NCBI GenBank assembly: GCA_902809985.1
Contig: CADDXC010000001.1
Span: 1,736,001-1,800,000, forward strand
Source of the DNA: Clostridiaceae bacterium BL-3
Lineage (GTDB): Bacteria; Bacillota; Clostridia; Clostridiales; Clostridiaceae
Reading direction: 5' to 3'
Length of the DNA stretch: 64,000 nucleotides
Made by a program: the position numbers and the translations under genes. Of the stretch, positions 35,982-61,140 are shown one piece after another (the stretch's first letter is position 1; every line of letters begins with the position of its first letter). The notes under the pieces were generated by a model, which was not told the DNA's origin, did no database searches, and worked only from the letters and a program-made list of their open reading frames with translations.

Positions 35982-36066
35982 TTTTAGCCTTATATGGCCC
36001 AAACAAATTGTTACCTCAAAGGTATTGACCAAATTATTTCTCACTTTTAATATGTGGTAAAAACTA
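35982..36066 (-). promoter_or_regulatory. Structured leader, copy A (87-aa gene/dnaX/holA)
   Basis: Read on the minus strand it starts with TACCACATATTAAA (36046 to 36059). A hairpin with stem TACCT/AGGTA (36012 to 36024) follows, then the linker ACAATTTGTTTGG, and a second hairpin with stem GCC/GGC (35987 to 35998). The ribosome-binding module AAAGGTGGAATG begins soon after. Four other copies share this order with compensating stem changes. Confidence 0.75.
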
Positions 36067-36082
36067 AAGCATAAATTGTTTT

Positions 36083-36133
36083 TTATAAAAAATAAAGAAT
36101 TCCGGCAATACAATTAGTACCGCCAGAATTTTT
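36083..36133 (-). terminator. Terminator of the toxin-antitoxin operon
   Basis: AATTCTGGCGGTAC pairs imperfectly with TATTGCCGGAATT, then TTTATTTTTT follows on the minus strand. Confidence 0.85.
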
Positions 36134-36172
36134 CATTTCAAGTTCAATTTTAGAAAAAGTTTATTAGTCTGT

Positions 36173-36496
36173 TTATACTGTAGTATACTTATTTGCTGAA
36201 TCATCTGCATTTTTCTTCTCAATTTTAATTGTAAGATCTGCAGCATCCAAATATTTAAGAAAGTTTCTTAAAGTTGGGGAATTACCATCTTTCTCAATTC
36301 TAGATATTACCTGTTGCTTTAACCCTGATCGTTCGGCAATTTTGTTTTGAGATATTCCCATCTCTTTTCTTTTTTGTACTACTTCTTTTATAAGTTTAAA
36401 CTCCCGATCTGCTTGGATATAGGCATTTTTAAAATCTTTATCCTCTTCCATTCTCTTTTTTATTTCTTCTCTTACATTTACTTTTTTAAATGGCAT
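36173..36496 (-). CDS. Xre-family antitoxin (HigA-like)
   Basis: A 107-aa protein with a classic Xre helix-turn-helix: KEMGISQNKIAERSGLKQQV followed by ISRIEKDGNSPTLRNFLKYL. It is the second gene of a toxin-first pair, 15 nt after the RelE-like gene, which is the HigBA order. It should neutralise the toxin and repress the operon through the palindrome upstream. The ATG at 36496 follows AGGAGGTG. Confidence 0.88.
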   Translation of the reverse strand: MPFKKVNVREEIKKRMEEDKDFKNAYIQADREFKLIKEVVQKRKEMGISQNKIAERSGLKQQVISRIEKDGNSPTLRNFLKYLDAADLTIKIEKKNADDSANKYTTV

Positions 36497-36511
36497 ATTT
36501 AACACCTCCTA

Positions 36512-36859
36512 TTACACAAATTTTTTATTGAGATATCTGCCCAGTTCTTTAGCTCTTTTTATTGCTCTATTAAGTTCAACTTTTTCAGCTTTCCCTTTTT
36601 GTTTTTTACAGGCATGAAGTATATAAAAATTATCTTTATCAGCTATAACATACATAAATCTATCTTTATAATTAAATTTTATTTCCCAAAGTTTGTTTTT
36701 AAGCTGCCGTGTGATTAATAAATTGAGAGCACTTAGTCCTTCATCTTCAAGTAGCTGTTTTATTCTGTATCCTTCTGCACTTTCATCGCAAGGTAAATTA
36801 TCCAAGTATTCATTTATTAGATCTTTTCCTCCATTTGTTTCATAGTCCCATACATTCAT
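36512..36859 (-). CDS. RelE/HigB-like toxin (phage Gp49-like family)
   Basis: About 115 aa, matching the phage-derived Gp49-like/HigB toxin family (PF05973 type), ribosome-dependent mRNA interferases. Typical blocks are LITRQLKNKLWEIKFNY and YILHACKKQKGKAEKVELNRAIKR, with the basic C-terminal residues used in catalysis. The start is uncertain: the ATG at 36859 has AAGAAGGG 13 nt upstream, while an ATG at 36889 lacks a ribosome binding site. It is followed directly by its antitoxin. The module probably stabilises the element. Confidence 0.85.
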   Translation of the reverse strand: MNVWDYETNGGKDLINEYLDNLPCDESAEGYRIKQLLEDEGLSALNLLITRQLKNKLWEIKFNYKDRFMYVIADKDNFYILHACKKQKGKAEKVELNRAIKRAKELGRYLNKKFV

Positions 36860-36891
36860 GTTTAGTATTATTCCCTTCTTGTAAGGCATAT

Positions 36892-36945
36892 ATACAACAA
36901 AAATATTGTATTTTATAATATGATTATACACCATTTTTGTTGTAT
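36892..36945 (-). promoter_or_regulatory. Toxin-antitoxin promoter and operator
   Basis: Two perfect 13-nt arms, ATACAACAAAAAT (36892) and ATTTTTGTTGTAT (ending 36945), face each other and flank a minus-strand TATAAT at 36923 to 36928. This is the usual layout of an autorepressed toxin-antitoxin promoter. Confidence 0.7.
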
Positions 36946-37026
36946 TTTAAATAATCTTTTACCTTTTATATAGATCTTATAACTGATTTTTAAAATTTCC
37001 CATTATTTAAGCTAAGTTATAATGGC

Positions 37027-38145
37027 TTACATTTTATTTACATTTATCAATCTTACTGGTAATACAATCCCTGTATAATTATCACTGTCTTTCTTCTTTA
37101 TAACTACTGGAGATACATTGTTTGAAAAGTCAAATTCCAGTTCATCATCTTCCTGGGATAATAACACATCAGAAATATATTTTGAATTGAATGCAATTTT
37201 TAGCTCTGAGCCCTGAAAGTCTTTCACTTTAATCTCTTCCTCTACTCTTCCAATGGAAGATTTGGCCAACAAATCAAGATTACCATCTTTTGTAAATGAC
37301 AATTTTACAAGCTTGTTTTCTCCCGTAAGTATAGCTGCAGCCCTGCTCAAAACAGATGCCAGATCCATTCTGTCTATTGTGCACACAGTATCGCTATTTT
37401 CAGGAATTATTTTTTCCCACTTTATATAGCTGCCTTCCAATGGAACACTGCTTATAAAAACTTCATTAAATGCAAATTCAATTATGCCTTTTGAAATTTT
37501 TACATTAACATTCTGCTCGTCATTTTCCAGTATCCTCTGAAGTTCTAATGCTGACTTCTGTGGAACTATAAAAGATACATTTTCATCACAATCTACAGGG
37601 AGACTACTTACGCACATCCTATATCCATCCAGAGCAACAAGAGTCAATTTCCCATTTTTAACTTCAAAAAATACTCCGGTAAGTACAGGTCTTGTTTCAT
37701 CATGTGCAACTGCAAAAATGACCTCTTTTAAGGCTTTTTTGAATTCCTCTGATATTACGTTTACCTCTACTTTACTTTTAATTGGCTTTATAACAGGAAA
37801 AGCATTTATATCCATAGATACAATATTGGATTGAGACTTTCCTGAAACTATGGACACCGAGTTATCTTTTTCTTCTGATTTTATAAGCAATTCCTGGTTT
37901 GGGAGGGCTTTTACATACGATAATAAGAATTTTGAATTTACCAAAATGGCTCCATTTTCAAAATCCATGCATGTAAAAGCTGCTTTAATTGTAGTTATAA
38001 GATCTGTACACATAAGCGTTACTTTGCCATCTTTTACTTCTAATAGAACTCCATCCAGATTTTCATTCAAATTTGTCTTTGTACAAGCTCTAACAACCTT
38101 TTCCAACGCATCTTGAAAAATTCCTTTTGTCGTCCTAAATAACAT
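37027..38145 (-). CDS. dnaN: DNA polymerase III beta subunit (sliding clamp)
   Basis: A 372-aa sliding clamp with the three-domain length and sequence character of DnaN. It starts LFRTTKGIFQDALEKVVRAC and has HDETRPVLTGVFFEVKNGKL in the domain 2 start and the closing YTGIVLPVRL. It tethers polymerases and other clamp-binding proteins to DNA. As an accessory copy inside the element, next to its own clamp-loader genes, it probably serves element replication. The ATG follows AAAGGTGGAATGTATT. An 87-aa gene and a terminator precede it, as for dnaX. Confidence 0.92.
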   Translation of the reverse strand: MLFRTTKGIFQDALEKVVRACTKTNLNENLDGVLLEVKDGKVTLMCTDLITTIKAAFTCMDFENGAILVNSKFLLSYVKALPNQELLIKSEEKDNSVSIVSGKSQSNIVSMDINAFPVIKPIKSKVEVNVISEEFKKALKEVIFAVAHDETRPVLTGVFFEVKNGKLTLVALDGYRMCVSSLPVDCDENVSFIVPQKSALELQRILENDEQNVNVKISKGIIEFAFNEVFISSVPLEGSYIKWEKIIPENSDTVCTIDRMDLASVLSRAAAILTGENKLVKLSFTKDGNLDLLAKSSIGRVEEEIKVKDFQGSELKIAFNSKYISDVLLSQEDDELEFDFSNNVSPVVIKKKDSDNYTGIVLPVRLINVNKM

Positions 38146-38372
38146 AATACATTCCACCTTTCATTTTTTTATAAACAAAAAACAGCCAAAATTTTATCAG
38201 CTGCTTTTGTTGAATACTTTTATATTTTCTTATTTAGATTTTCGCAAAGTTTATTATATTCCTTTGAAGTAGTTTCTCTCAGTTCTCTAGTTATTGTATA
38301 CAGCATATGAGCTCTTAGCCTATCCAATCTATCTGCTGATCTGAATAATTTCAATATATATTTGTCCAGTTC
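38141..38372. repeat. Direct repeat copy 2 (about 232 bp)
   Basis: This is the near-identical partner of 35618 to 35848, in the same orientation 2.5 kb away. dnaN and the toxin-antitoxin pair lie between the copies. Confidence 0.9.
38176..38210 (-). terminator. Intrinsic terminator or attenuator upstream of dnaN
   Basis: The same hairpin and T run as upstream of dnaX (AAAGCAGC against GGCTGTTT), placed between the second 87-aa gene and dnaN. Confidence 0.75.
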
Positions 38373-38483
38373 ATTGACACCATCAAGGTATCCATCAATA
38401 TAACTGCACAATACTATTTGAGATATTCTTCCTTCCTTCGTAAGAGATGGCTCTTTTATAAGCAGTAATGAGTTTATATCCAC
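38220..38483 (-). CDS. Conserved 87-aa protein upstream of dnaN
   Basis: Paralogue of the protein at 35696 to 35959, exactly the same length. The last 45 residues are identical, while the first 40 diverge at about a third of positions. The GTG at 38483 aligns with the ATG of the other copy and follows the module AAAGGTGGAGTGTATT. It is preceded by leader copy B and followed by a terminator and dnaN. Its role is unknown. Confidence 0.75.
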   Translation of the reverse strand: MDINSLLLIKEPSLTKEGRISQIVLCSYIDGYLDGVNELDKYILKLFRSADRLDRLRAHMLYTITRELRETTSKEYNKLCENLNKKI

Positions 38484-38504
38484 AATACACTCCACCTTTC
38501 ATTA

Positions 38505-38590
38505 TTTTTTAACCTTGTATAGTCAAAACCAAACGTTACCCATATAAGAGCATTTGCAAATTTCCTTTATATATTTAATATGTGGTAAAA
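38505..38590 (-). promoter_or_regulatory. Structured leader, copy B (87-aa gene/dnaN)
   Basis: Minus-strand order: TACCACATATTAAA (38574 to 38587), hairpin 1 with GCTC/GGGT and loop TTATAT, linker TAACGTTTGGTTTT, hairpin 2 with GACT/AGGTT. The stems differ from copy A but keep pairing through G-U and compensating changes. Confidence 0.7.
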
Positions 38591-38611
38591 ACTAGAGTTT
38601 CAACTTATTTG

Positions 38612-38655
38612 TATAAAAAATTCCGGAGACACACCTAATCATCTCCAGAACTTTT
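38612..38655 (-). terminator. Terminator of the primase gene
   Basis: TTCTGGAGAT pairs with GTCTCCGGAA, followed by TTTTTTATA on the minus strand. Confidence 0.85.
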
Positions 38656-38676
38656 ATAATTCAATACACATACTTT

Positions 38677-39774
38677 CTAACCTACAATATGCTTAAGATA
38701 ATCATCTATGCCTTTATACGAAGGATTCCACGTACATACTCTTATATCACTGAATCCTTCTGATTTCAGATATTGTATCAGCTTTACCTGATTTTCCATG
38801 ACTTGTGAATTATCAAACCTATCCATATCATAAGCTACAAAAATCCGTTCTGCTTTCATTTTCTTTAAAATTTCCGCACAACCATTATAAGAGTTTACTC
38901 CTGGAACTGCCAGAAATGTTGTATCTGATAGAATTCCAGCTACTGTTGCCTTTAATGCTCCCTCGGTAATAGCCACTTTTTTGCCGGAATGTTTTGAATT
39001 CCAATAAACGTGGAAAAAACCTTGAGCAGAACATCCCCTGTCCATGTAGCCTGATGAAAACCATGGATATTTCTTCTTGATTTTTTCGCCGTTTTTTCTT
39101 ATCTGACATCCCTGTATTCTGCCATACATATCTCTTACAGGTACAAGAAATCCCCCTTCTTTTGGAGTCCAGAATGTCCAATTTTTATATTTGCTCGGAT
39201 AAAACCCTGGAATTCCTTTAAGGGAAAAACCGCATTTCTGAATTTCTATACATATTTTTCTTTTCAGATATTTACTTTCTGGTAGAGTTGCATACCCATT
39301 TTTACGGATATCTTTTTCAGTGAGACCTCTCAAAACAAGGTTTTCCAAATGTTTATCACTTACGTAAAGCAATGATATAAGTTTTCTATAAACCTTATCT
39401 CTTGTATCTATATCAGCCATTGGAATTACAGGCTTGTTTAACTTCTTTTCCATTTTCTTAATTTTTTTCACAACACTGATTTTTACGTCAAACCCCATGA
39501 TTTCCTTAAATGCCTCTTTAGTTGAACAACTATGAAGTTCAGCATACAATTTTATATTTGAACCCGCAGCTCCGCATTTTACACATCTATACACATTTTT
39601 ATAGTTTGGATTTCTTCTATCCGTTGGTGTCAGGTAGAAATGTCCGGGTTTTGCACCACAGAAAGGACACGTTGCTGTGAATCTGTATCCTTCTTCTTTT
39701 ATGTCTGTCAATCCACACATGTAAGCAACATTTAATATGCTTAATCTAGGATCAGTATCATAATCTATTTCCAT
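38677..39774 (-). CDS. Zinc-finger/TOPRIM primase-like protein
   Basis: A 365-aa protein with an N-terminal CHC2-like zinc ribbon (CPFC... and YRCVKCGAAG, about residues 35 to 75). A C-terminal TOPRIM-like domain has KVAITEGALKATVAGIL and VAYDMDRFDN. This is the layout of plasmid and phage primases or DUF3854 proteins without a helicase domain. It probably primes element replication. The ATG at 39774 follows AAGGAGGTG. The reading frame extends upstream to 39834, but that extension would overlap the preceding terminator hairpin. Confidence 0.8.
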   Translation of the reverse strand: MEIDYDTDPRLSILNVAYMCGLTDIKEEGYRFTATCPFCGAKPGHFYLTPTDRRNPNYKNVYRCVKCGAAGSNIKLYAELHSCSTKEAFKEIMGFDVKISVVKKIKKMEKKLNKPVIPMADIDTRDKVYRKLISLLYVSDKHLENLVLRGLTEKDIRKNGYATLPESKYLKRKICIEIQKCGFSLKGIPGFYPSKYKNWTFWTPKEGGFLVPVRDMYGRIQGCQIRKNGEKIKKKYPWFSSGYMDRGCSAQGFFHVYWNSKHSGKKVAITEGALKATVAGILSDTTFLAVPGVNSYNGCAEILKKMKAERIFVAYDMDRFDNSQVMENQVKLIQYLKSEGFSDIRVCTWNPSYKGIDDYLKHIVG

Positions 39775-39804
39775 CAAAAGCACCTCCTTATATTCCCTTA
39801 TATT

Positions 39805-39818
39805 TTTAATATGTGGTA
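39805..39818 (-). promoter_or_regulatory. 14-nt box upstream of the primase gene
   Basis: TACCACATATTAAA on the minus strand, an exact match to the box in leaders A, B, D and E. The two-hairpin part is absent here, so the box is a separate module, probably part of a promoter or operator. Confidence 0.65.
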
Positions 39819-39825
39819 ATTTAAA

Positions 39826-39853
39826 AGCTGCCATATTAAATGACAGCTTTTTA
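39826..39853 (-). terminator. Terminator of the SSB/small-protein operon
   Basis: AAAAGCTGTCAT pairs with ATGGCAGCTTTT around a short loop, directly after the 54-aa gene. Confidence 0.8.
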
Positions 39854-39855
39854 TG

Positions 39856-40020
39856 TTACAATTTAGAAAGTTTTTCGCCCAAAATATAAATCTCCCTGGT
39901 AATCATTTTTAATTCTTCTTTTCTTATCTTTAATCCCGATTTGCTCAGTGACCTTAATTCATTCAAATCATCCAGTTTATTTTCCATTTTTCTTTTCAAT
40001 ATCTTCTTTTTTGTTTTCAT
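39856..40020 (-). CDS. Small basic helical protein (54 aa)
   Basis: This short gene lies between the first SSB and the primase. The peptide starts MKTKKKILKRKMENKLDDL and ends KLSKL. It is strongly charged with a predicted helix throughout, and resembles small phage or plasmid accessory proteins only in general character. The ATG has a purine-rich AAGGGGGC site upstream. A terminator follows immediately. No function can be assigned. Confidence 0.55.
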   Translation of the reverse strand: MKTKKKILKRKMENKLDDLNELRSLSKSGLKIRKEELKMITREIYILGEKLSKL

Positions 40021-40060
40021 ATACCAGAGCCCCCTTACCTCTATATCATTAATTTAATTT

Positions 40061-40456
40061 TTAGAAAGGTACATCACCAACCAAACTCATGTCCGACTCA
40101 GGAATATAGTTAGAATTTCCTGTAGAATGGCTTGTATAAGACTTTGGAGAAAGATACTTGGTTTCCTCCGCAATAACTTCAGTAACAAACCTCATACTGC
40201 CATCTTTGGCTTTATAACTTCTGGTCTGAATTCTGCCGCTCACTGCTATAAGTTTCCCTTTACATGTATTTTGTGCAGCAGCTTCGGCAATTTTCCCCCA
40301 TAAAACAACAGGAATGAAATCTGCCTGCTGATGTCCTTCTTTTTTTACTTTCCTGTCAACAGCCAGATTAAATGTGACAACCGGTATATTGCTTCCCGGA
40401 GTAAATTTCAAATCAACGTCTTTAGTCAACCTTCCAATTAATACAACTTTATTCAC
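40061..40456 (-). CDS. ssb: Single-stranded DNA-binding protein 1
   Basis: A 131-aa SSB with a complete OB fold ([52 protein letters not shown]). The C-terminal tip is LVGDVPF, less acidic than the canonical DDDIPF, so its contacts with partner proteins may be weaker. The GTG start follows the module AAAGGTGGAATGTATT. It clusters with the primase and small proteins and differs from the second SSB of the element. Confidence 0.93.
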   Translation of the reverse strand: MNKVVLIGRLTKDVDLKFTPGSNIPVVTFNLAVDRKVKKEGHQQADFIPVVLWGKIAEAAAQNTCKGKLIAVSGRIQTRSYKAKDGSMRFVTEVIAEETKYLSPKSYTSHSTGNSNYIPESDMSLVGDVPF

Positions 40457-40473
40457 AATACATTCCACCTTTT

Positions 40474-40635
40474 TTATTTATTTATGACATACAAAAATAT
40501 TATTATTAAGAATGCCAACGATGCTTCACAACCCTTGTCTCCTGACTTGGCAAACTTGAAAATATTTCTGCAGAACATAATTGACAAAGCAACTATAGAA
40601 ATAACTTTCAAAATCATTGCTCCCATATATGTCAT
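40474..40635 (-). CDS. Small two-segment membrane protein (53 aa)
   Basis: This short gene fits exactly between its neighbours. It starts 2 nt after the upstream gene's stop and ends 17 nt before the SSB start. The peptide has two hydrophobic segments (GAMILKVISIVALSIMF and SLAFLIIIFLYVI) joined by a charged loop with GDKGCE. The ATG follows AAAGGCGG. It is probably translated with its upstream neighbour. Function unknown. Confidence 0.6.
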   Translation of the reverse strand: MTYMGAMILKVISIVALSIMFCRNIFKFAKSGDKGCEASLAFLIIIFLYVINK

Positions 40636-40637
40636 GG

Positions 40638-41003
40638 CTAAGCCGCCTTTCTGCTTTCAAAAAGTTCATCTACAACACTTTTACAGAAGCATGCAATTTG
40701 CTCCGTATTTCTGATATCTTCTGTATAAATCACAGGTTCATCGTACAAAAGACATATTTTGTTGAGAATTTTTATACTGTATACGGCACAAGCCATTGCC
40801 CTTTTCCTTAAAAGCATCTGGCCGGCAACATACTCTCTGAATTCTTCTCCCTGGTATTTAAAACGTGCAATAGTCAATATGTTCTCTGTATCAGCAACCG
40901 TCCTTACATATTCGCTGAAATCTTTTTCAACAAATCTCAAATTTTCAAGAGTTTCATTATCCTTTATTTTTGCTGCTAATTTTCCGATTCTTTCCTTGTA
41001 CAT
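40638..41003 (-). CDS. Uncharacterised 121-aa protein (possibly DUF3232)
   Basis: A small, probably all-helical protein with blocks YVRTVADTENILTIAR and RKRAMACAVYSIKILNKICL. The layout recalls the clostridial DUF3232 family, but this is from memory and not certain. The ATG at 41003 follows AAAGGTGGAGTGTGTT, the element's common start module. It is followed by the 53-aa membrane protein, the 54-aa protein and SSB in one probable operon. Confidence 0.65.
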   Translation of the reverse strand: MYKERIGKLAAKIKDNETLENLRFVEKDFSEYVRTVADTENILTIARFKYQGEEFREYVAGQMLLRKRAMACAVYSIKILNKICLLYDEPVIYTEDIRNTEQIACFCKSVVDELFESRKAA

Positions 41004-41051
41004 AACACACTCCACCTTTTCATTTTTTATAATTTTTTATAATTTTTGATA

Positions 41052-41099
41052 ATAAAAGAAGAACTCTCAATGTCTGAAAGTTCTTCTAAAAATTTTTAT
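41052..41099 (-). terminator. Terminator after the 134-aa gene
   Basis: GAAGAACT pairs with AGTTCTTC, with flanking A and T runs. Confidence 0.85.
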
Positions 41100-41135
41100 A
41101 ATTATTGTCATAATAGAAATTGTTTCCCGTACTTC

Positions 41136-41540
41136 TTAATAACTTTTTATATCATATCCAAGCAATGTTCTGACTGCTGAAAATTTAAGTGCATCCAAGT
41201 GCGTGTCCATATCTCTCGAACATACATCTTCACCGAATGTATTAAACCCCAATGTTACATCATATTTCCCATTTTCTGAAGAATTGATTGAAAACAAATC
41301 ACTTTCCTTAAATCCATGCAAGTTTAGTGTATGTTTAATTTTATCTTCATTATTGCAGGTCAGAATATACATTATAGCATCATAATATTCCTGCTTCTCC
41401 TCTAATTTTGTTTTAAGTTCATTCTTAGAATTCTCCAGCATAATCTTTTCATGTTCCAAATCTTCTATTTTTCTTTGTGAAGCAAATTCCTTTTTTGCTG
41501 CTATACTTTTGTTCGTGAATTTTGATAATAAATTCAACAT
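41136..41540 (-). CDS. Uncharacterised coiled-coil protein (134 aa)
   Basis: The first half is a basic helix leading into a likely coiled coil (EKIMLENSKNELKTKLEEKQEY). The second half is a compact alpha/beta segment with GKYDVTLGFNTFGEDVCS. I do not recognise a family. The ATG at 41540 follows AAAGGTGGAATATATT, and leader copy C lies directly upstream, so it is controlled like the replisome genes. A terminator follows, making it a single-gene unit. Confidence 0.7.
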   Translation of the reverse strand: MLNLLSKFTNKSIAAKKEFASQRKIEDLEHEKIMLENSKNELKTKLEEKQEYYDAIMYILTCNNEDKIKHTLNLHGFKESDLFSINSSENGKYDVTLGFNTFGEDVCSRDMDTHLDALKFSAVRTLLGYDIKSY

Positions 41541-41559
41541 AATATATTCCACCTTTCAA

Positions 41560-41642
41560 TTTTTAGCTTTATGGCCAAAACCAAATGTCACCCTACAGGG
41601 TATTAACTAAATTAATCTCTAATACTAATATGCGATATTTTA
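41560..41642 (-). promoter_or_regulatory. Structured leader, copy C
   Basis: Minus-strand order: diverged box TATCGCATATTAGT (41624 to 41637), hairpin 1 ACCC/GGGT with loop TGTA, linker GACATTTGGTTTT, hairpin 2 GGC/GCT. This is the most diverged box, but the hairpins are intact. Confidence 0.65.
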
Positions 41643-41680
41643 AATACAAAAGGTTAAAATTAAAAATTATTTTTCATATT

Positions 41681-43282: not shown

Positions 43283-43330
43283 AATAAATAAAAAGAGAAT
43301 CCTCAAAATTGAAAATTCTCCTAAATTTTT
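43283..43330 (-). terminator. Terminator between the 82-aa gene and the LPD1 gene
   Basis: GAGAAT pairs with ATTCTC in an AT-rich hairpin followed by a T-rich tail on the minus strand. It lies between the 82-aa gene and the start of the LPD1 gene. Confidence 0.65.
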
Positions 43331-43920: not shown

Positions 43921-43935
43921 TTCACACTCCATTTA

Positions 43936-44020
43936 TTTGTTAGCTTTATAGCTGAAGCCAATTGTTACCTTATATAAGGCATTTACCAATTTCCTTTATA
44001 TATTTAATATGTGGTATTTT
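43936..44020 (-). promoter_or_regulatory. Structured leader, copy D
   Basis: Minus-strand order: TACCACATATTAAA (44003 to 44016), hairpin 1 GCCTT/AAGGT with loop ATAT, linker AACAATTGGCTTC, hairpin 2 AGC/GCT. The second stem is a clear compensating change relative to copies A and E. Confidence 0.75.
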
Positions 44021-44041: not shown

Positions 44042-44078
44042 AAAAAATAAGGTCTGCCACACTAGACAGACCTTATTA
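44042..44078 (-). terminator. Terminator downstream of the VOC gene
   Basis: A perfect 11-bp stem AATAAGGTCTG/CAGACCTTATT. It lies between the VOC gene and leader D. Confidence 0.8.
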
Positions 44079-48659: not shown

Positions 48660-49505
48660 CTACCTTACCCTTCTTATAAGTCTCACAAGATTGGCATCTA
48701 TTTTCCGCATTTTAAGCTCTTCAGATTGGAAAATCCTTTTTATTTTTATGACGCATGTGTCACCCGGCTCTGGATTGAAACCTTCCCAGTGAGGGTATGG
48801 ACAAAGTGCACTCACGTGTTTTAAATGTTTCAGCTCAAAAAATATTCCAAAAGACTCTACTCCTGTTACCACAGCTTCATAGCAGCTGTTCTTGGTAACT
48901 TTCTTGATATTTTCAAAATACGGATCATCTGTAGCTCTCTTTATGGAAAGTTTTAAAATGCCTTTTTCCATGTCAATTTCCTGGATAACAGCCGTCTTTA
49001 CATCTCCTATCTGGATAACATTTCTAAGATCTGATATATAGCCCCAGTCTATTTCCTCTTTTGGTATTCTGACTTCCACCCCGTAAGCTTCGACATATGC
49101 CGTAGTACGGCCTATACCCACAATTCTGACTGGAATTTTATCTCCCTCAGCATGTTTGGGAAATTCCAGCTTTGACCTCAAATCCATTGCTTTCTTTCTC
49201 GATGCAACGGCAATTTTTCTTTCGGCATCAAGCTCGACCACTATGAAATCAATTGGAGCTCCTATCATAGTTTTCATTATATTATAAATTTCCATCTGAT
49301 CTTCACGCTTGATATTCATTTCTCTGGAAGGTATGAGAACTTTGAAATTTCCATAGAAAACAACTCCACATGGAATTTCTATTATCTTTTCACCATCTTC
49401 TGTAACTTTTTTCTTTTTTATAATTTCAATAGCAGATAATTCTCCCGTCAGAATCTTGCTGCTCTGACGGCTTGCATATACATCCTGTAAAAACTGATCC
49501 ACCAT
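48660..49505 (-). CDS. S1-domain RNA-binding protein
   Basis: About 281 aa with two S1-like OB domains. One spans roughly residues 115 to 190 (PVRIVGIGRTTAYVEAYGVE then VRIPKEEI). The second spans 200 to 275 (CYEAVVTGVESFGIFFELK). The N-terminal third is of unknown type. S1 domains bind RNA or, less often, DNA, so its place inside a pilus operon is unusual. The ATG at 49505 follows AGAAAGGGTG; the longer upstream frame overlaps the membrane-protein gene. Confidence 0.78.
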   Translation of the reverse strand: MVDQFLQDVYASRQSSKILTGELSAIEIIKKKKVTEDGEKIIEIPCGVVFYGNFKVLIPSREMNIKREDQMEIYNIMKTMIGAPIDFIVVELDAERKIAVASRKKAMDLRSKLEFPKHAEGDKIPVRIVGIGRTTAYVEAYGVEVRIPKEEIDWGYISDLRNVIQIGDVKTAVIQEIDMEKGILKLSIKRATDDPYFENIKKVTKNSCYEAVVTGVESFGIFFELKHLKHVSALCPYPHWEGFNPEPGDTCVIKIKRIFQSEELKMRKIDANLVRLIRRVR

Positions 49506-49548
49506 GTAAATCACCCTTTCTCTTATAATTTTTAATTCCCGTAATTTA

Positions 49549-50136
49549 TCACCACTGTAAAGACCATTTTGCTTTCTCCATAAGAGTAATAAGAACAACT
49601 ATACTTATAACAAGCATACTTTTATCCATGATTCCACCTGCCTTGCATAACTTAAATGAGTAGCTTCCTTTAAATGGAAAAACGAGTGCTTCCCCTTGAT
49701 AATTTAAAAGATCAATTAGAATATGACTTGCATATCCAACAACAAAACCTGCAAATATTGGTCTGTACAAAATATATATTCCATAAGAAAATGCACCAAA
49801 ACCAAGTAAACTATGTGAGAACATTCTATGTCCAGTGAGTCTTGAAATTAAAGAAGCAAGTGAAAGTATAAGGAGACCCGAGGATGTGAGGTGATTTTGC
49901 AAATTATGAAAGCCATATTTGAGATGTACATATAAAACTATGGATAAAATAACAGACATGGCTATAATTACTTTATTTAAATATTTTGAGATTGTACTAT
50001 TATCAAGATCTATATCCGGGGTCAATGAGCCAATAGCGGCTCCGATAAAAAACACATAACTACATTTTACATTTAAGATTAAACTTAAAGCGGCAGCAGA
50101 AGCAATTCCCACTGCCGCATGAGTTCTACCTGTCAC
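49549..50136 (-). CDS. YdjM-type membrane-bound metal-dependent hydrolase
   Basis: About 195 aa, of the YdjM/DUF457 family. It starts TGRTHAAVGIASAAAL and has SLTPDIDLDNS and RMFSHSLLGFGAF in hydrophobic context, the expected His/Asp metal ligands. The family has several membrane segments and unknown substrates. The start is GTG at 50136 or ATG at 50145, both near GGGGTG. It lies between CpaB and the S1 protein and may be a passenger gene of the operon. Confidence 0.78.
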   Translation of the reverse strand: MTGRTHAAVGIASAAALSLILNVKCSYVFFIGAAIGSLTPDIDLDNSTISKYLNKVIIAMSVILSIVLYVHLKYGFHNLQNHLTSSGLLILSLASLISRLTGHRMFSHSLLGFGAFSYGIYILYRPIFAGFVVGYASHILIDLLNYQGEALVFPFKGSYSFKLCKAGGIMDKSMLVISIVVLITLMEKAKWSLQW

Positions 50137-53357: not shown

Positions 53358-53368
53358 ATTAGCACCTC

Positions 53369-54316
53369 CTAGAAATCAAACCTGGCAAGTTTTTCTACTA
53401 CAAGTATTCCTACCAGATATGCAAAAACATTGATTGAAACAATAATTTGTCCTATTGTAGAAGTCTGAAGCTGCTCGATTAAACCTGGGTTCATATAAAT
53501 AAGCATTAAAAATATAAGAGCTGACATCCCCACCAGAGCGGCTACGCCAATTACACCACGACTTATCTCTTTTTTTCTCAAAGTTTGCTCTTTTGCGAAA
53601 CTCATCATAAGTTTCTCTGATTTTTTAAGAACTTCAAGATATTGGTTCGAGTGCTTTGAACATATCTGCAGGTTCTTTATAAGAAGGCTGTATTGATTAC
53701 TATCAACTCTATATTTTATATTTTCAAGTGCTGTATAAGGTGGAATCCCATGCTTGACCTCATATTTAAAACTTTCACATATACTTTGCAGAGGCTCCTT
53801 CATATACTTTCCTGTTGAAGCAATAGCATATGAAATATTATTTTTCACCATGCAGAAATTTTTAAGAAGGTTTATAAAATCTATAATCCTCTTTGTTATT
53901 TTATTTGAGTTTATTCCCACCAGTATATTGAGTAAAACAGAAGGCACTTTATATCCTATCAGCGCCATGAAAATTGAAGGTACCAGTATATTTATAAATT
54001 TCTGAGACAATATGAAAAATATTATTGATATGGCACAAGATATGACTATCACGAAAACCGGAGTTATAAATTTGTACTTGATGTTTAATCCTGACTGCTG
54101 TATTAATAGTGACAAGTCCTGTAAGTATCGGGACCTTTTCTTCTTGGATACATATTGGATGTCTTTTCTAAGGTCACTGGAATTAAGTCTGTTTAATCCA
54201 TTTTCTACTTTTTTTCTGAATTTAACATCTCTGACATGTGAAATAGTGATATAAATGAGGTTGTACAGTAAAACCATCGTTACAATTTCAAGTATAACAA
54301 TAAGCCAGTTATACAA
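53369..54316 (-). CDS. tadB: TadB-like pilus assembly membrane protein
   Basis: About 315 aa, a type II secretion F-domain protein with an N-terminal membrane segment (WLIVILEIVTMVLLYNLIYI), two central and two C-terminal ones. It partners TadC. The TTG at 54316 overlaps the end of cpaF and follows GGGAG at proper spacing; an ATG at 54325 overlaps that site. Translational coupling with cpaF is likely. Confidence 0.82.
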   Translation of the reverse strand: MYNWLIVILEIVTMVLLYNLIYITISHVRDVKFRKKVENGLNRLNSSDLRKDIQYVSKKKRSRYLQDLSLLIQQSGLNIKYKFITPVFVIVISCAISIIFFILSQKFINILVPSIFMALIGYKVPSVLLNILVGINSNKITKRIIDFINLLKNFCMVKNNISYAIASTGKYMKEPLQSICESFKYEVKHGIPPYTALENIKYRVDSNQYSLLIKNLQICSKHSNQYLEVLKKSEKLMMSFAKEQTLRKKEISRGVIGVAALVGMSALIFLMLIYMNPGLIEQLQTSTIGQIIVSINVFAYLVGILVVEKLARFDF

Positions 54317-55637: not shown

Positions 55638-55643
55638 AGTATA

Positions 55644-57095
55644 TTACCTCCTTCCCCTTCTCGCTAATTTCTTCATATCCCCTAGGAGCCAGAAACCGAT
55701 GCCTTTTGTGGGAGATACATTCGTTTTTTTATCATTTTCATACTCTTTATTTTCAGTTTTGTTCTTTACCACAATTGAATTTGAAAGACCTATAAAAGTA
55801 ACTATTCTGCCATAGGAATTTTTATCAGTTCTTGAAGAATACAGTGAACCAATCAAAGGTTTTTTAGTATTTATGGACTTGTTGTAATTTTTGCTTAATG
55901 GTATCTGAGATATAACCTTATAACTCTCGAAAATCTTATCCATGACTCCAATATCCAGAGCTCCATTATCCTCCACAACTGCTATTCCAAATTTATCTTT
56001 ATAAATTCCAGTACCTTCAAGAGTTTTAAGAGCATTCACCGTATTTCTTGCCGAAAGATAATTTGCTTCCACCACGGTCACTATTTTGTCGCTGTTTAGC
56101 AGGGAATATATTGTTCCTGCCGCTGCCTTGAAAGGGTTGACCGATATTAGGATCACATCATATATTTCCCTGGCCGTATCAATAATGCTTTTGTAATGCT
56201 TGCCTTCCATCTGTTTTAAAACACTATTGTCATATATACCTGTCAGAACGTCTATTTTACTGTATTTGATCGGTATAACAAATTTTTTAAGTAATTCCGC
56301 ATTGAAAGTAAAGTTTTCTATGGATGTATAGCAGGCTGAAAGTCCTGTATCAATTGAATTAGAATTAAAATTGTCCTTTACCATAATTTCTTTGTTTACT
56401 CCAAACATATGATCAAGGCAGGGTACAGTATTATTATCTATAACAAGTATCCTGTTTTCGGATTTTCTGCTGAAAGCTACAGCCGAATTAGCCAGAACAA
56501 AGCTGGCAAGAATATTATTGTCAGCAGAATAAAATGATATGACATTTTGCTTGTATAATCTTGTTTCTACCACTTTTTTCTCGATTACCCTTATTTTTTC
56601 AACCTCTTTTATTTTTTCTTTTGTCCTTATAGGTTTTTCTACTTTGGTATTTTTTTTGGTATCAACAAGAGGTTTATCAATATCATTTTCGGGATGTTTG
56701 GCTATTTTTTCTTGAAAATTCAAATAGATGGAACTCACATCTGTAAATGTCCTGGGATTTTTTATACAATCCAATATATTATCTACTGTTACTGGATCAA
56801 ATAGAAAATCATATATGGCAAATTCAAAACATGCTTCTATACCTTTTATGTCTTCCTGATTTGTAAGATAAATAATTCTTTGAGTTTTGCTCCCTCTTTT
56901 AAGTTCAAACAGAAGCTGTCTTAATGGTATATCCCCAGGAAGTCTTTTAGATAGAATTATAATATCCGAACTTACATTATCGCCCGTAAGATATTCTCTA
57001 TACCCTACAATTTTTGTACCGTGGGTATTTTCTCTATCAATTGCTTCTTTTATCTGCTCATCAAAATCACTTATTCCCGTCGCTATCAATATCAA
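55644..57095 (-). CDS. TadZ/CpaE-like protein with degenerate P-loop
   Basis: A 483-aa protein with an N-terminal receiver-like domain (about residues 1 to 120, lacking clear phosphorylation residues). A charged linker rich in Lys/Glu follows, then a ParA/MinD-like domain from about residue 185. TadZ localises the pilus machine at the cell pole. Where a KGGVGKT Walker A is expected, this protein has SFYSADNNILASFVLANSAV with no catalytic lysine, so it probably does not hydrolyse ATP. It is the first gene of the operon, starting at TTG after AAAGGAG. Confidence 0.75.
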   Translation of the reverse strand: MILIATGISDFDEQIKEAIDRENTHGTKIVGYREYLTGDNVSSDIIILSKRLPGDIPLRQLLFELKRGSKTQRIIYLTNQEDIKGIEACFEFAIYDFLFDPVTVDNILDCIKNPRTFTDVSSIYLNFQEKIAKHPENDIDKPLVDTKKNTKVEKPIRTKEKIKEVEKIRVIEKKVVETRLYKQNVISFYSADNNILASFVLANSAVAFSRKSENRILVIDNNTVPCLDHMFGVNKEIMVKDNFNSNSIDTGLSACYTSIENFTFNAELLKKFVIPIKYSKIDVLTGIYDNSVLKQMEGKHYKSIIDTAREIYDVILISVNPFKAAAGTIYSLLNSDKIVTVVEANYLSARNTVNALKTLEGTGIYKDKFGIAVVEDNGALDIGVMDKIFESYKVISQIPLSKNYNKSINTKKPLIGSLYSSRTDKNSYGRIVTFIGLSNSIVVKNKTENKEYENDKKTNVSPTKGIGFWLLGDMKKLARRGRR

Positions 57096-57225
57096 AAGCC
57101 TATATCTCCTTTCTGTAGAAATTCAGTATACACTCAGTATAAATGAATACGATGATAAGAAATTATGGCGATTTCTTGCTTATAATTGGGCTAAAATTTA
57201 ATATTTTCTCCAGCAAAAATTGGGG

Positions 57226-57264
57226 ATAAAAAAAAGAAGGCCCCCACAATCAAGGAACCTTCTC
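57226..57264 (-). terminator. Terminator of the CWB2 surface-protein gene
   Basis: AGAAGGTTCC pairs with GGGGGCCTTCT, followed by TTTTTTTT on the minus strand. Confidence 0.9.
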
Positions 57265-57298
57265 TGTCCATTACAAATTATTTTTTTGCTTGTATCTT

Positions 57299-60200
57299 TT
57301 ATTTGTATGAATACTCTATGCTATTGCATACAGGATATTTACTCTTGTCCCATATATGATCCTGAGATAAAAAATCATCTGTTACATTGAAATAATCATG
57401 TGTTGGATCATTATAACCAGGAATTGGTTCATTAGGTCCGGAAAAATAAGTAGGATCATCCCAGGTAGGATCCAGTTGATAATACTGACCACCTATCTTA
57501 ACTATATTCCATGCGTGGTCTCCATAACTTACCCCGCCATCACTTGAAACAGTTCCTACTACCATCATACTATCAATTCCTACAGCCTTCAACAACCTGT
57601 ACATTGCGTCTGCATATCCCTCACAAACGGCATCCCCATTTATCAAGACACCGTAAGCAGTATAGATATCAGGATTATTTTCCTTTTTTACATCAATTCC
57701 TTCAGCAACGTCATAATTGTAATGACAATTATTGACCAAGTAATCATGGAGGGCAAGCTCTTTTTGATAATCTGTCATAGTTGCATTAGTTACAGAATTG
57801 ACTATTTCATTTACTTTTGATGCTACAGTCTCCCTTTTTGATATCATATTTTCGTTGGTGCCAGTATAATTGAAAGTTATATTAAGTTTATATTTTGTTA
57901 TTCCATTTAGTTGAGTTATTTTTGGCAACGATGACGTCGGATAGGAATACCTTAAAAGTTCTGCATTCAAATCTGGATTATCCCTTTTAATTTCATCTAT
58001 TGTCGTTAAGAAATAATATTTATCTGAAGACTCGTAAGCATCATCTTCATCTACATATATGTCCAGTGACTCATCAAAATTTTGTAGTGAGTTCTTTATT
58101 GTGTCGTAAAATTCTTGATGGGTTGTTAATATTGGCTGTATGACTTGAAGCCTATTTAATAATGAGGTCTTATCTCCATTGTCTGGCAATGCAGTAACTA
58201 GAGCTTTAGCACTATCAACATCAACTTTAAATTCTGTACTTTCAGCCTTTACGACGGCCTGAGTAGCCGTGTCTAATGCTTCCTGACCTGTGCCAGCCTG
58301 GTTTATCTCATCCTGAACAGCCTGCAACCTTGCTTGCAGAGCTTCCTTATCCGTGCTGTCCTTGAGAACAGCTACCAGTGACTTTGCATTATCTACATCC
58401 GCTTGCACCTTGGAATTTTCTGCCTCAATAACCGCTGCCGTGGCAGTGTCTAATTTTTGCTTATTAATACTAATTTGGCTTATCTCATACTGAACTTCAT
58501 CTAGCCTGCTTAATAAACCATTTTTGTCTGGACTATCAGGGAGTGCTGTCACTAACGTTATTGCAGTAGTGTAATCTTCCTGTGTCATAGTGCTCTCTAC
58601 ATGTGTAACGGCATCTGTTGCCTGCTGTAACTTTTGCTCATCATCCATAGTGTCAATTTGATTCTGAATATCTTCTGCTTGCTCCAATAAACCATCTCGA
58701 ATTACATTATCGTCAAGCTTATCAATCTCCTGTATTGCTTTATCCAAATCTTCCTGAATTAATGTAGATTGGGCAGTAGCTAAGTATTCCTTCGATTTTA
58801 TTATTATATCTACAGTATTCAATCTATTTTCAAGAGATGTTTTATCTGAACTACTAGGTAGTGCATCAACTAATACTTTAGCTTTATTATAGTCTTCCGT
58901 AGTAGATGAACCCTCTGCATTAAATACTGCATCAACTGCATCTATAAGTATCTTCAAGTTAGACAAACGTGTTTCTAGTGCTGTTTTATCCAAACTATCC
59001 GGCAATGCATCTACCAGTTCTTTTGCTGTATTGTAGGGGGCATAATTACCATTATTCTGTTCTGCTTCCTGTACTGCTAATGTTGCATCTATTACATTTT
59101 GTACTACATTTAACCTGTTTTGCAAACTTGTCTTATATGTGCTATCTGGCAATGCCATTATCAGAGCTTTAGCTGAGTCAACATCTACTTGTGACTTAGA
59201 GCTCTCTGCTTTGCTTATTGCATCATTAGCCTTTGTTAGAGCCTGCTGTTGATTATTAATTTGATTTATCTCATTTTGTACAATTTCTAGTCTATTTTCA
59301 AGACTAGTCTTAGTATCTTCATCAGACAAGGCATCTACCAACGTTTTGGCAAAATTTACATCATTTTGAAGCTTACTGCTTTCTGCCTTTGACACTGCTG
59401 AAATTGCATCCTTTAGTTCCTGTTTCTGTCCTTGAGAAATCAACTGATCTATTTCATTTTGAACAACTTTTAACCTGTTAATCAAAGAAGTTTTGTCTGA
59501 ACCGTCTTCCAAAGCATCAACTAATATCTTTGCACTACTTACGTCAGCCTGCAGTTTTGAGCTTTCGGCTTTAGTTACTGCGGCAGTGGCTTTATCCAAC
59601 GCTTCTTTCCCTGCATTAGCTTGATTTATTTCATCCTGAACAGTTTGTAATCTGTTAAGTAAAGAAGTCTTGTCCGAACTGCCTTCCAAAGCATCTACCA
59701 ACGCTTTTGCACTATCTACATCTGCCTGTAATTTTGAGTTTTCAGCCTTAACGACTGCATTTGTTGCATTTGTTAATTTATTTGATGACTTATCGCTGCT
59801 GTCCGACGAATCATTATCATCATTATCATTTGAGTTACTGTCTTTATTATTTTCAAATAAAGAATTTATTTTATCTTCAACAGATTGAGGAACAACTCCG
59901 GTACCACCAACTACCTGCAGGTCAGTATTTTTTTTAATTTTTATCTTGATATAATCTACCGCTTTATTGGTTGCAGTAGATTCTTCAGTATCTGTAAGTA
60001 TCAATGGAACTGAATACTTACCTGCTAATGCAGAAGCAACCAACGCATCTGCATAGCCCTGCCCTGTAGCATTTGCCACATAAATCTTGCCTGCATTAAA
60101 ATCTCCATCAAATGCTTTCAATACAGCAAGGTTTGTAGCAAACCTGTCTGCTCCACCATTTATTCTATTGTCTGCTTTTAATGCTTTGTATACTGCATCG

Positions 60201-60853
60201 CTTACTACGTTTGTAGTTCCGACTACAGTAACATTCGAATCCTTTGCAAAATTAATAGTTGATTTTATAGAATCTACATTATTATCTGTAAGAATCAATA
60301 TTTCATCTTTAGCTGCTGCAACTGGTGCTACAGACAATGCATCTGAGAATCCAGTTCCTGCTACTACTATTATGTTGTCCTTGCTTACTCCCAAATCTAC
60401 AAGCTTGTTTACTACTGCCAGATTCGTAGCATATCTGTCATTTCCACCAAGTCTTGTAACATTGTAGTCTAATTTTAATGCACTTTCAATTGAACTTGAT
60501 ATTGATGCAGTTCCACCAATAACATATACATTCTTTGGTTTCAATGTTTCAAGTGCACTCTTTGCATCTGCACTAAGTGAAGCTGATTGAGTCAAAAGTA
60601 TTGGTGCACCCAATTTCTTGGCTAATACAGAAGCACTAACTGAATCTGCATAACCTTCACCTGATACCAGAACTGCATTCTCACTTCCACTTGTCCAATT
60701 TGTTTTGGCAACCTGGGAGGCTGTTGCGTATCTGTTTTCTCCCCCTACTCTTGTTATGGAGCTTGCGGATACTTTTGCTGAATCCGTAATAAGTGCTGTA
60801 ATGATAACTAATGATATAAGCCCCGCACTTGCAAATAAATTCTTGATATTCAC
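57299..60853 (-). CDS. CWB2 surface protein with helical repeats and transglutaminase-like domain
   Basis: About 1184 aa. A signal peptide (LISLVIITALITDSAKVSAS) is followed by three CWB2 repeats (ITRVGGENRYATA, VTRLGGNDRYATN, RINGGADRFATN) that bind a secondary wall polymer. A Ser/Asp-rich linker leads to about ten repeats of roughly 50 aa with the pattern AE...DV..AK.LV.ALPDS.DKTSL..RL. A C-terminal transglutaminase-like domain has Cys in DAVCEGYADA, His in YGDHAWNIV and Asp in QLDPTWDDP. The start is GTG at 60853 or 60856 after TGGAGATG. It is a candidate adhesin or mating-contact protein. Confidence 0.85.
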   Translation of the reverse strand: MNIKNLFASAGLISLVIITALITDSAKVSASSITRVGGENRYATASQVAKTNWTSGSENAVLVSGEGYADSVSASVLAKKLGAPILLTQSASLSADAKSALETLKPKNVYVIGGTASISSSIESALKLDYNVTRLGGNDRYATNLAVVNKLVDLGVSKDNIIVVAGTGFSDALSVAPVAAAKDEILILTDNNVDSIKSTINFAKDSNVTVVGTTNVVSDAVYKALKADNRINGGADRFATNLAVLKAFDGDFNAGKIYVANATGQGYADALVASALAGKYSVPLILTDTEESTATNKAVDYIKIKIKKNTDLQVVGGTGVVPQSVEDKINSLFENNKDSNSNDNDDNDSSDSSDKSSNKLTNATNAVVKAENSKLQADVDSAKALVDALEGSSDKTSLLNRLQTVQDEINQANAGKEALDKATAAVTKAESSKLQADVSSAKILVDALEDGSDKTSLINRLKVVQNEIDQLISQGQKQELKDAISAVSKAESSKLQNDVNFAKTLVDALSDEDTKTSLENRLEIVQNEINQINNQQQALTKANDAISKAESSKSQVDVDSAKALIMALPDSTYKTSLQNRLNVVQNVIDATLAVQEAEQNNGNYAPYNTAKELVDALPDSLDKTALETRLSNLKILIDAVDAVFNAEGSSTTEDYNKAKVLVDALPSSSDKTSLENRLNTVDIIIKSKEYLATAQSTLIQEDLDKAIQEIDKLDDNVIRDGLLEQAEDIQNQIDTMDDEQKLQQATDAVTHVESTMTQEDYTTAITLVTALPDSPDKNGLLSRLDEVQYEISQISINKQKLDTATAAVIEAENSKVQADVDNAKSLVAVLKDSTDKEALQARLQAVQDEINQAGTGQEALDTATQAVVKAESTEFKVDVDSAKALVTALPDNGDKTSLLNRLQVIQPILTTHQEFYDTIKNSLQNFDESLDIYVDEDDAYESSDKYYFLTTIDEIKRDNPDLNAELLRYSYPTSSLPKITQLNGITKYKLNITFNYTGTNENMISKRETVASKVNEIVNSVTNATMTDYQKELALHDYLVNNCHYNYDVAEGIDVKKENNPDIYTAYGVLINGDAVCEGYADAMYRLLKAVGIDSMMVVGTVSSDGGVSYGDHAWNIVKIGGQYYQLDPTWDDPTYFSGPNEPIPGYNDPTHDYFNVTDDFLSQDHIWDKSKYPVCNSIEYSYK

Positions 60854-60983
60854 CACATTCATCTCCATTTTTATATATTTAAATTATTCACACAAAATTT
60901 ACAATATTTTGGATATATTATCCTCTCTTATATATTTTTTCTAATATCATTACTCGTGGTATTTTTCACAAACTTTATATGTG

Positions 60984-61031
60984 TCAGGTTATTATAGACT
61001 TCTTAATCTTTCTGTTCTTAATATTTTTCAT
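60984..61031 (-). CDS. 15-aa leader peptide or truncated signal-peptide ORF
   Basis: A tiny ORF (MKNIKNRKIKKSIIT) has an excellent ribosome binding site (AAAGGTGGGAGG) 5 nt before the ATG and sits right after leader copy E. It could be a regulatory leader peptide for the surface-protein gene 131 nt downstream, or the remnant of a longer secreted protein's start, since its basic character resembles a signal-peptide N-region. Confidence 0.45.
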   Translation of the reverse strand: MKNIKNRKIKKSIIT

Positions 61032-61052
61032 ATTCCTCCCACCTTTCATTAT

Positions 61053-61140
61053 TTGTTAGTCTCACGACCGAAACCAATTGTCGCCCCCATAAGGGACATT
61101 TACTAAAATATTTCTCATATTTAATATGTGGTATTCTAAA
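61053..61140 (-). promoter_or_regulatory. Structured leader, copy E
   Basis: Minus-strand order: TACCACATATTAAA (61120 to 61133), hairpin 1 GTCCC/GGGGGC with loop TTAT, linker GACAATTGGTTTC, hairpin 2 GTC/GAC with loop GTGA. It is the furthest copy, showing that the family extends beyond the replication genes to the surface-protein region. The 343-nt gap between the two surface-protein genes (60854 to 61196) holds this leader, the 15-aa ORF and a terminator. Confidence 0.75.

What the first reader, a model, noticed from the sequence alone, without database searches (positions are those of the whole stretch)
35982..61140. Five-copy structured leader with compensating stems: candidate new cis-regulatory RNA
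Copies at 35982-36066, 38505-38590, 41560-41642, 43936-44020 and 61053-61140 share one order on the minus strand: box TACCACATATTAAA, hairpin 1, a linker close to ACAATTGGTTT, hairpin 2, then the ribosome binding site. Hairpin 1 stems are TACCT/AGGTA, GCTC/GGGT, ACCC/GGGT, GCCTT/AAGGT and GTCCC/GGGGGC. Hairpin 2 stems include GCC/GGC, AGC/GCT and GTC/GAC. The stems change while pairing is kept, and the linker stays conserved. That is the signature of a functional RNA rather than a chance repeat. I do not recognise a known riboswitch class in it. It precedes an 87-aa gene/dnaX/holA, its paralogue/dnaN, two unknown-gene units and a surface-protein unit.
Basis: seen in the sequence. Interest (0 to 1): 0.82.

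Follow-up and report, generated by a model that had tools for sequence, protein, structure and literature searches.

The report
Two-hairpin RNA leader of mobile element
A large conjugative element in a Clostridium chromosome starts several of its operons with the same short promoter-like box followed by a small two-hairpin RNA; the RNA looks real and unlike the catalogued RNA families, and probably controls read-through or translation of the element's genes.

Summary
Five leaders lie at the stated places. A covariance model from them finds three more in the same element, four in a Clostridium ljungdahlii element and one each in two genomes of another genus: 14 copies. No other of 206 family or 225 order genomes matched, nor did Rfam. 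On the 14 copies the hairpins keep pairing while changing sequence, beyond a tree-aware null. A diverged counterpart occurs on the related Clostridioides plasmid pESS17301a: 13 promoters, 11 with both hairpins.

One correction: the 'box' is probably promoter DNA, not part of the RNA. It occurs alone before the primase gene in two species. A terminator ends 5-57 nt upstream of 12 of 14 boxes (host starts 10 of 121). In pESS17301a its CATATT core stands at one spacing from an upstream TTCAAA in 13 of 13. Two elements encode a sigma factor.

Mechanism is unproven. I favour cis-acting antitermination (0.4): terminators stand between leader and next gene in several units, and directly behind the leader in two species. 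Against: 0 of 13 pESS promoters show this; start codons behind two such terminators open only short frames; hairpin 2 sits 10-19 nt before the Shine-Dalgarno in 9 of 12 leaders, which suits translational control (0.35).

The parts
35971..36063 (-). Leader copy c1: box 36046-36059, hairpins 1 and 2, linker; upstream of the 87-aa gene and the dnaX-like gene
38496..38591 (-). Leader copy c2: box 38574-38587, hairpins 1 and 2; upstream of the 91-aa paralogue and dnaN
41550..41641 (-). Leader copy c3: diverged box TATCGCATATTAGT at 41624-41637, hairpins 1 and 2; upstream of a 134/138-aa gene, a DUF3232 gene and SSB
43927..44020 (-). Leader copy c4: box 44003-44016, hairpins 1 and 2; upstream of two small genes and the LPD1 / CLCA_X-like gene
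61043..61137 (-). Leader copy c5: box 61120-61133, hairpins 1 and 2; SD serves a 15-codon ORF (60984-61031), then the CWB2/transglutaminase surface-protein gene
39805..39818 (-). Exact box without hairpins, about 30 nt before the start codon taken for the primase (DUF3854); a box with one change stands in the same place in C. ljungdahlii
35654..35684 (-). Intrinsic terminator between the 87-aa gene and dnaX, whose start codon lies about 31 nt after the stem
38178..38208 (-). Identical terminator between the 91-aa gene and dnaN
43293..43322 (-). Terminator between the small c4-led genes and the LPD1 gene
41057..41087 (-). Terminator between the c3-led gene and the DUF3232 gene
36091..36137 (-). 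Terminator ending 31 nt upstream of box c1
38619..38652 (-). Terminator ending 31 nt upstream of box c2
39826..39848 (-). Terminator-like hairpin ending 7 nt upstream of the primase box
44046..44077 (-). Terminator ending 29 nt upstream of box c4
61144..61187 (-). Terminator ending 10 nt upstream of box c5
48660..49598 (-). S1-domain protein with relatives in the C. ljungdahlii element and, more distantly, pESS17301a; untested candidate RNA-binding partner

Best explanation
A repeated promoter-plus-leader cassette of a conjugative element. Supported by sequence: (1) a conserved box with the core CATATTA, usually just downstream of a terminator, best read as the -10 region of an element-wide promoter; (2) a two-hairpin RNA of about 60 nt at the start of the mRNA. 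Inferred: the box is read by the element's own SigB/F/G-like sigma factor; the two hairpins, with the conserved single-stranded stretches around them, act in cis on the elongating RNA polymerase (or recruit a factor to it) so that it reads through the terminators that stand between the leader and the genes behind it (dnaX, dnaN, LPD1 and others). Only transcripts begun at these promoters would then express the whole unit. My separate probabilities: structured leader RNA 0.9; box is a promoter element 0.85; read by the element's sigma 0.5; antitermination 0.4.
For: RNA: 14 copies, 91.5% of cells paired, 7 of 11 pairs with two-sided changes; tree-aware null reached in 1 (pairing), 9 (two-sided pairs) and 1 (two-sided cells) of 400; a second set of 11 leaders in pESS17301a, hairpin 2 paired in 44 of 44 cells with two-sided changes in 3 of 4 pairs, null 1, 2 and 0 of 400 for both hairpins together. 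Promoter: box without hairpins before the primase in two species; terminator 5-57 nt upstream of 12 of 14 boxes against 10 of 121 host operon-like starts and 38 of 600 random host windows; pESS17301a has 13 TTCAAA-N18-CATATT sites, 0.75 expected for the search pattern, one spacing in 13 of 13. Sigma: element gene L019:10647-11306, related to the pESS17301a sigma. Antitermination: a terminator with a shared core stands directly behind the leader, before an SD, at L021:12451 (n2) and L039:3424 (g6b), in two species, and the leader does not disrupt its predicted fold; 5 of 12 leaders have, within 1 kb, a terminator followed within 60 nt by an SD and the start of an ORF of at least 40 codons, against 9 of 123 host operon-like starts, Fisher p=0.003.
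Against: Tight terminators are not clearly more frequent in the element overall (5 of 26, host 8 of 47). One of the five leaders (g6a) has a terminator that is followed by a box of its own; without it 4 of 12, p=0.017, and counting duplicated c1/c2 once 3 of 11, p=0.06. In pESS17301a 0 of 13 promoters have such a terminator within 1 kb. The start codons behind the n2 and g6b terminators open only short frames (38 codons; 16 by eye), so what they serve is unclear, and the minimum-energy folds of n2 and g6b show a different leader fold, not the two hairpins. Hairpin 2 lies 10-19 nt before the SD in 9 of 12 leaders, which suits translational control. The C. ljungdahlii copies keep the box though no close sigma orthologue was found in that genome; its contig with the leaders also shows no T4SS block. 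Hairpin 2 of the core family alone is only weakly above the null (29, 49 and 77 of 400). In the core family no clear -35 is seen.
Confidence: 0.4

Rival explanations
1. Post-transcriptional regulon: the two hairpins are bound by an RNA-binding protein (element- or host-encoded, for example the conserved S1-domain protein) next to the SD, setting translation or mRNA stability of all leader-led units together. The internal terminators only lower the level of downstream genes.
For: Hairpin 2 ends 10-19 nt before the SD in 9 of 12 leaders and close to it in pESS17301a. An S1-domain protein with relatives in three elements. Tight terminators are not in clear excess in the element and absent after pESS promoters.
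Against: Two leaders, in two species, are separated from the SD by a terminator, 61-66 nt; in G110 the next gene-sized ORF on that strand starts about 390 nt after the leader. No pairing between leader hairpins and SD was seen except a 4-bp box-SD pairing that needs transcription to start upstream of the box.
Confidence: 0.35
2. Passive 5' leader: hairpins stabilise the mRNA or keep the SD open, without a switch or partner.
For: Hairpins are small and near the 5' end; in pESS17301a the spacers are A-rich and little conserved.
Against: In the core family stretches before hairpin 1 and between the hairpins are conserved too. The start expected from the box leaves roughly 15-20 unpaired nt at the 5' end, a poor cap against a 5' exonuclease (inference).
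Confidence: 0.12
3. A ligand-binding riboswitch class.
For: Leader in front of several units; no Rfam match, so a new class is not excluded.
Against: Very short stems, no multi-stem junction, no mutually exclusive terminator fold in the two leader-terminator copies; found only on or near mobile elements, with genes that share no obvious metabolite.
Confidence: 0.07
4. A DNA-level element: single-stranded promoter or protein-binding repeat used during transfer.
For: Conjugative element, all eight leaders on one strand, SSB and primase genes nearby.
Against: The box lies outside the covarying stems, unlike single-stranded promoters, where the promoter is formed in the folded strand (recalled); G-U is the commonest pair at two positions, which fits RNA better than DNA.
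Confidence: 0.06

Closest known systems
HK022 put RNA (putL, putR)
   Same: About 70 nt, two stem-loops downstream of an early promoter of a mobile element (putL just behind it), more than one copy per element (PMC9378689, passages)
   Different: Sequences were not compared; stems here are 3-6 bp instead of long; antitermination not shown; different phylum
ANTAR (EutV-type) dual-hairpin leader
   Same: Two small hairpins with a short linker in a leader; antitermination (PMC3369931, passages)
   Different: No A1/G4 hexaloops in both hairpins, terminator does not overlap hairpin 2 where one follows it, no ANTAR protein found in the window's genome
conAn of pLS20-type conjugation operons
   Same: Gram-positive conjugative element, terminators inside operons, RNA component at the operon start (PMC8955417, passages)
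   Different: [quoted passage not shown] here a roughly 60-nt leader repeated at many operons, protein partner unknown
EGeRS1 sequences of pLS20 establishment operons
   Same: One conserved, foldable sequence immediately before the SD of several operons of one conjugative plasmid (PMC8708921, passages)
   Different: 400-600 bp and relatively GC-rich; here about 90 bp and AT-rich
LoaP leader hairpin
   Same: Small leader hairpin required for antitermination in Bacillota (PMC12691694, passages)
   Different: UNCG loop and NusG paralogue; neither found here

Membership tests
Any Rfam 15 family | Score over the family's gathering threshold | tested here: not met
   0 matches in the window and in five loci with other copies; permissive search of 35.8-44.2 kb listed 8 weak matches, none covering a leader (one on the other strand touches box c4). 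The C. ljungdahlii locus L037 was not searched.
ANTAR dual-hairpin leader | Hexanucleotide loops with A at 1 and G at 4 in both hairpins | tested here: not met
   Loops of the 14 copies listed
ANTAR dual-hairpin leader | ANTAR-domain protein in the genome | tested here: not met
   PF03861: 0 in G000; 1 in C. ljungdahlii, on another contig than its leaders
ANTAR dual-hairpin leader | Terminator overlapping the second hairpin | tested here: not met
   In the two copies with a terminator directly behind the leader it starts downstream of hairpin 2
put RNA | Two stem-loops, about 70 nt, downstream of the promoter | tested here: met
   (anatomy only; promoter inferred)
put RNA | Read-through of terminators without a protein factor, via the beta' zinc-binding domain | not testable with these tools
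   needs transcription assays
conAn | ConAn1 protein plus conAn2 RNA at the start of a long conjugation operon | not tested
   no ConAn1 model or sequence was used
LoaP system | NusG paralogue available to the element | tested here: not met
   One NusG-family match in G000, on another contig
LoaP system | UNCG hairpin in the leader | tested here: not met
EGeRS1 | 400-600 bp conserved, relatively GC-rich region | tested here: not met
   about 90 nt at 23-34% GC
Single-stranded promoter | Promoter boxes inside a folded stem | tested here: not met
   Box lies outside both covarying hairpins

The most novel reading that the evidence does not exclude
A family of put-like antitermination RNAs in Gram-positive conjugative elements, placed behind a dedicated element-encoded sigma promoter at up to a dozen operons, so that only RNA polymerase started by the element's own sigma can read the element's terminator-studded genes.
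Probability: 0.25. Interest if true: 0.82.

Novelty: new variant of a known kind. Interest (0 to 1): 0.6.

Why it matters
It would give large clostridial conjugative elements and plasmids a common regulon signal (promoter plus RNA) by which their establishment and transfer genes can be found and grouped. It also offers a compact system for testing how a short nascent RNA controls RNA polymerase or translation in Bacillota, where few such RNAs are known (recalled). The Clostridioides plasmid case, 13 promoter-like sites with one spacing and 11 two-hairpin leaders, makes a sigma-regulon hypothesis directly testable.

Tried and rejected
Known RNA families: none. A nucleotide search of plasmids with c4 and with c5, and of phages with c5, gave one short match to a Mycoplasmopsis record (E 0.06) and nothing else; one exact-pattern scan of viral contigs with linker and hairpin 2 gave 0. 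R1 gave no strong leader in 31 named loci around relatives of the primase (best 28.7 bits, the C. difficile counterpart). ANTAR, LoaP/NusG, single-stranded promoter: rejected as above. An alternative pairing between the stretch before hairpin 1 and hairpin 2, suggested by the fold of n2, was judged by eye on A8: it breaks in c2 and c4, so it was dropped. Column pair 37-60 ranks second in the covariation list but has no neighbouring pairs and was not interpreted. The general claim that the element is rich in tight terminators was tested and not supported. Papers: searches listed no report of this leader; they cover only the open library and those terms, and one search returned no paper at all. 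Structure prediction of the S1 protein was not run.
Full report
What was claimed and what is there. The window is G000:C1:1736001-1800000 of a 3.86 Mb genome in the same genus as Clostridium ljungdahlii (the G006 contig of 71,482 bp corresponds to NZ_LITT01000010.1, C. ljungdahlii ERI-2). The five leaders exist where stated, all on the minus strand. Model R1 from these five found three more in the surrounding element at 65.6-76.4 bits (L021:6975-7066, L021:12451-12541, L022:14645-14735), the next best match being 23.6 bits, and four in C. ljungdahlii. One each was found in G106 and G110, of another genus. Tallies, own genome included: 2 of 13 genus genomes, 4 of 206 family genomes, the same 4 of 225 order genomes, and with model R2 only the own genome of 391 class genomes. 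The larger scans score only 10-20 candidates per genome, so diverged copies can be missed. In 39 sources that included 280 kb of host chromosome, R2 found nothing above 25 bits other than the 14.

The element. The genes around the leaders are those of a conjugative element: VirD4/TraG coupling protein, VirB4-like ATPase, PrgI, a weakly pilin-like protein, NlpC/P60, T2SSE ATPases, actin-like (ParM-type) protein, SSB, DnaN, DnaX-like, DUF3854 primase, CWB2 surface proteins. Much of this set is annotated on the 136-kb Clostridioides plasmid pESS17301a, with recognisable homologues for many genes. The C. ljungdahlii contig shares a block of genes at about 57-87% identity but shows no match to the T4SS block or the sigma gene and has only parts of several genes (VirD4, LPD1, SSB), so it looks decayed; only that contig was compared, the sigma being sought in the whole genome. 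The ends of the window's element were not mapped; a tyrosine recombinase related to that of pESS17301a lies at 1906592-1907746.

The RNA. On a structure-blind alignment of the 14 copies (A8), hairpin 1 (5 pairs) and hairpin 2 (6 pairs counting two outer U-A) are formed in 91.5% of cells; 7 of 11 pairs have changes on both sides; sliding the partners drops pairing to 18-53%. The structure was taken from the five window copies and adjusted by eye on the 14. A null in which each column's parsimony changes are thrown at random on the tree reached the observed pairing in 1, the two-sided pairs in 9 and the two-sided cells in 1 of 400; for hairpin 1 alone 7, 28 and 1 of 400; for hairpin 2 alone 29, 49 and 77 of 400. 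Pair 71-82 of hairpin 2 is nevertheless first in a corrected covariation list restricted to column pairs at least 80% pairable. One copy, g6d of C. ljungdahlii, has lost hairpin 2. Minimum-energy folds of single sequences show hairpin 1 in c1, c3, c4 and c5, not in c2, and another fold altogether in n2 and g6b.

The Clostridioides counterpart. A weak R1 match (28.7 bits) and direct repeats in pESS17301a led to leaders with the same order. A promoter pattern drawn from five of them, TTCAAA-N16-18-C[CA]ATATT, occurs 13 times, 0.75 expected in 20 random sequences of the same dinucleotide make-up; in all 13 the two boxes have one spacing. Eleven have both hairpins, one has hairpin 2 only and one has none. 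In the eleven, hairpin 2 is paired in all 44 cells with changes on both sides in 3 of 4 pairs; hairpin 1 in 75% of cells, partly for alignment reasons. The columns were chosen on this same alignment. The tree-aware null is reached in 1 (pairing), 2 (two-sided pairs) and 0 (two-sided cells) of 400, and for hairpin 2 alone in 5, 13 and 2 of 400. Two C. difficile genomes have 10 of 27 and 13 of 26 matches of the pattern on one contig each, the contigs that carry the primase relative; over the whole genomes the pattern is less striking against its reversed control (27 against 18, 26 against 14). R2 did not list the pESS leaders, so homology of the two leader families rests on layout, the CATATT box and the related elements, not on a significant model match.

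The box is a promoter element. It is kept without the hairpins before the primase in two species. For 14 boxes (12 leaders of the window's genome and C. ljungdahlii, and the two primase boxes; G106 and G110 not included) a terminator ends 5-57 nt upstream in 12; c3 and g6a have none. Controls: 38 of 600 random host windows and 10 of 121 host operon-like starts at the matching distance. So transcription of the leader should begin at or near the box. In pESS17301a it is the downstream half of a pair with one spacing. In the core family only a T-rich stretch stands at the -35 position, in some copies the T-run of the upstream terminator. The sigma gene L019:10647-11306 matches Sigma70_r2 and scores best with SigB/F/G models, below their own cut-offs but above that of the sigma-70 superfamily model. 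From recall, sporulation sigma factors of that group read -10 elements beginning CATA, which fits, but no test links this sigma to this box. A rival is that a host sigma factor reads it.

Mechanism. For antitermination: a terminator with a shared core stands directly behind the leader and before an SD in two species, n2 and g6b (the tool scan lists the first, but not the second), and its fold is undisturbed by the leader; 5 of 12 leaders have a tight terminator within 1 kb against 9 of 123 host starts (p=0.003), falling to p=0.017 and 0.06 after dropping g6a and merging c1/c2. A published remark that intrinsic terminators inside an operon are a good indication of an antitermination system (PMC8955417, passages) and the put RNA parallel (PMC9378689, passages) make it plausible. 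Against: the starts behind the n2 and g6b terminators open short frames only (38 codons; 16 by eye); no clear excess of tight terminators in the element as a whole (5 of 26, host 8 of 47; my gene call missed LPD1, which would make it 6); none after 13 pESS promoters; and the regular 10-19 nt between hairpin 2 and the SD (9 of 12; 61-66 in two; no SD found in g6d). I therefore give antitermination 0.4 and a translational or stability role through a bound protein 0.35.

Novelty. No Rfam match, nothing beyond one short weak match in the plasmid and phage collections for single leaders, and no paper on it in the listings of searches. On this evidence it is a new leader-RNA family tied to a promoter regulon; the kind of thing (structured leader of a mobile element) is known.

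Noticed in passing
L065-L067 (pESS17301a, NZ_CP067354.1): Thirteen TTCAAA-N18-CATATT sites on one plasmid, with two annotated sigma factors; a likely plasmid-encoded sigma regulon.
   Followed up: partly
35641-35940 and 38165-38464: A 300-bp duplication (92% identical) carries the 87/91-aa gene and the same terminator before dnaX and dnaN.
   Followed up: partly
36173-36934: HTH_3 and Gp49-like pair, looks like a toxin-antitoxin module between leader c1 and dnaN.
   Followed up: no
L019:6801-9534: The VirB4-like ATPase is spread over two overlapping ORFs, while pESS17301a has one gene matching both; the frame may be broken.
   Followed up: no
L021:11586-12400: The gene behind leader n2 seems to have a disrupted frame: the SD-proximal ORF is 38 codons, the 268-aa ORF lies in another frame.
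   Followed up: no
L019:9849-9871 and L065:9705-9742: A strong terminator at the same gene boundary, between a small gene (weakly pilin-like in L019, unnamed in pESS17301a) and PrgI, in both elements, 19-27 nt before the next start.
   Followed up: partly
L046:10362-11796: The lone leader in G110 lies about 390 nt before a tyrosine recombinase gene, with an FtsK-like gene nearby, so perhaps on another integrative element.
   Followed up: partly
60984-61031: Leader c5 directly precedes a 15-codon ORF, a possible leader peptide before the surface-protein gene.
   Followed up: no
L020:11622-12830 and L023:3698-4906: Two 402-aa ORFs, 1179 of 1209 bases identical, contain a box-like sequence inside the frame; presumably a repeated mobile gene.
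   Followed up: no
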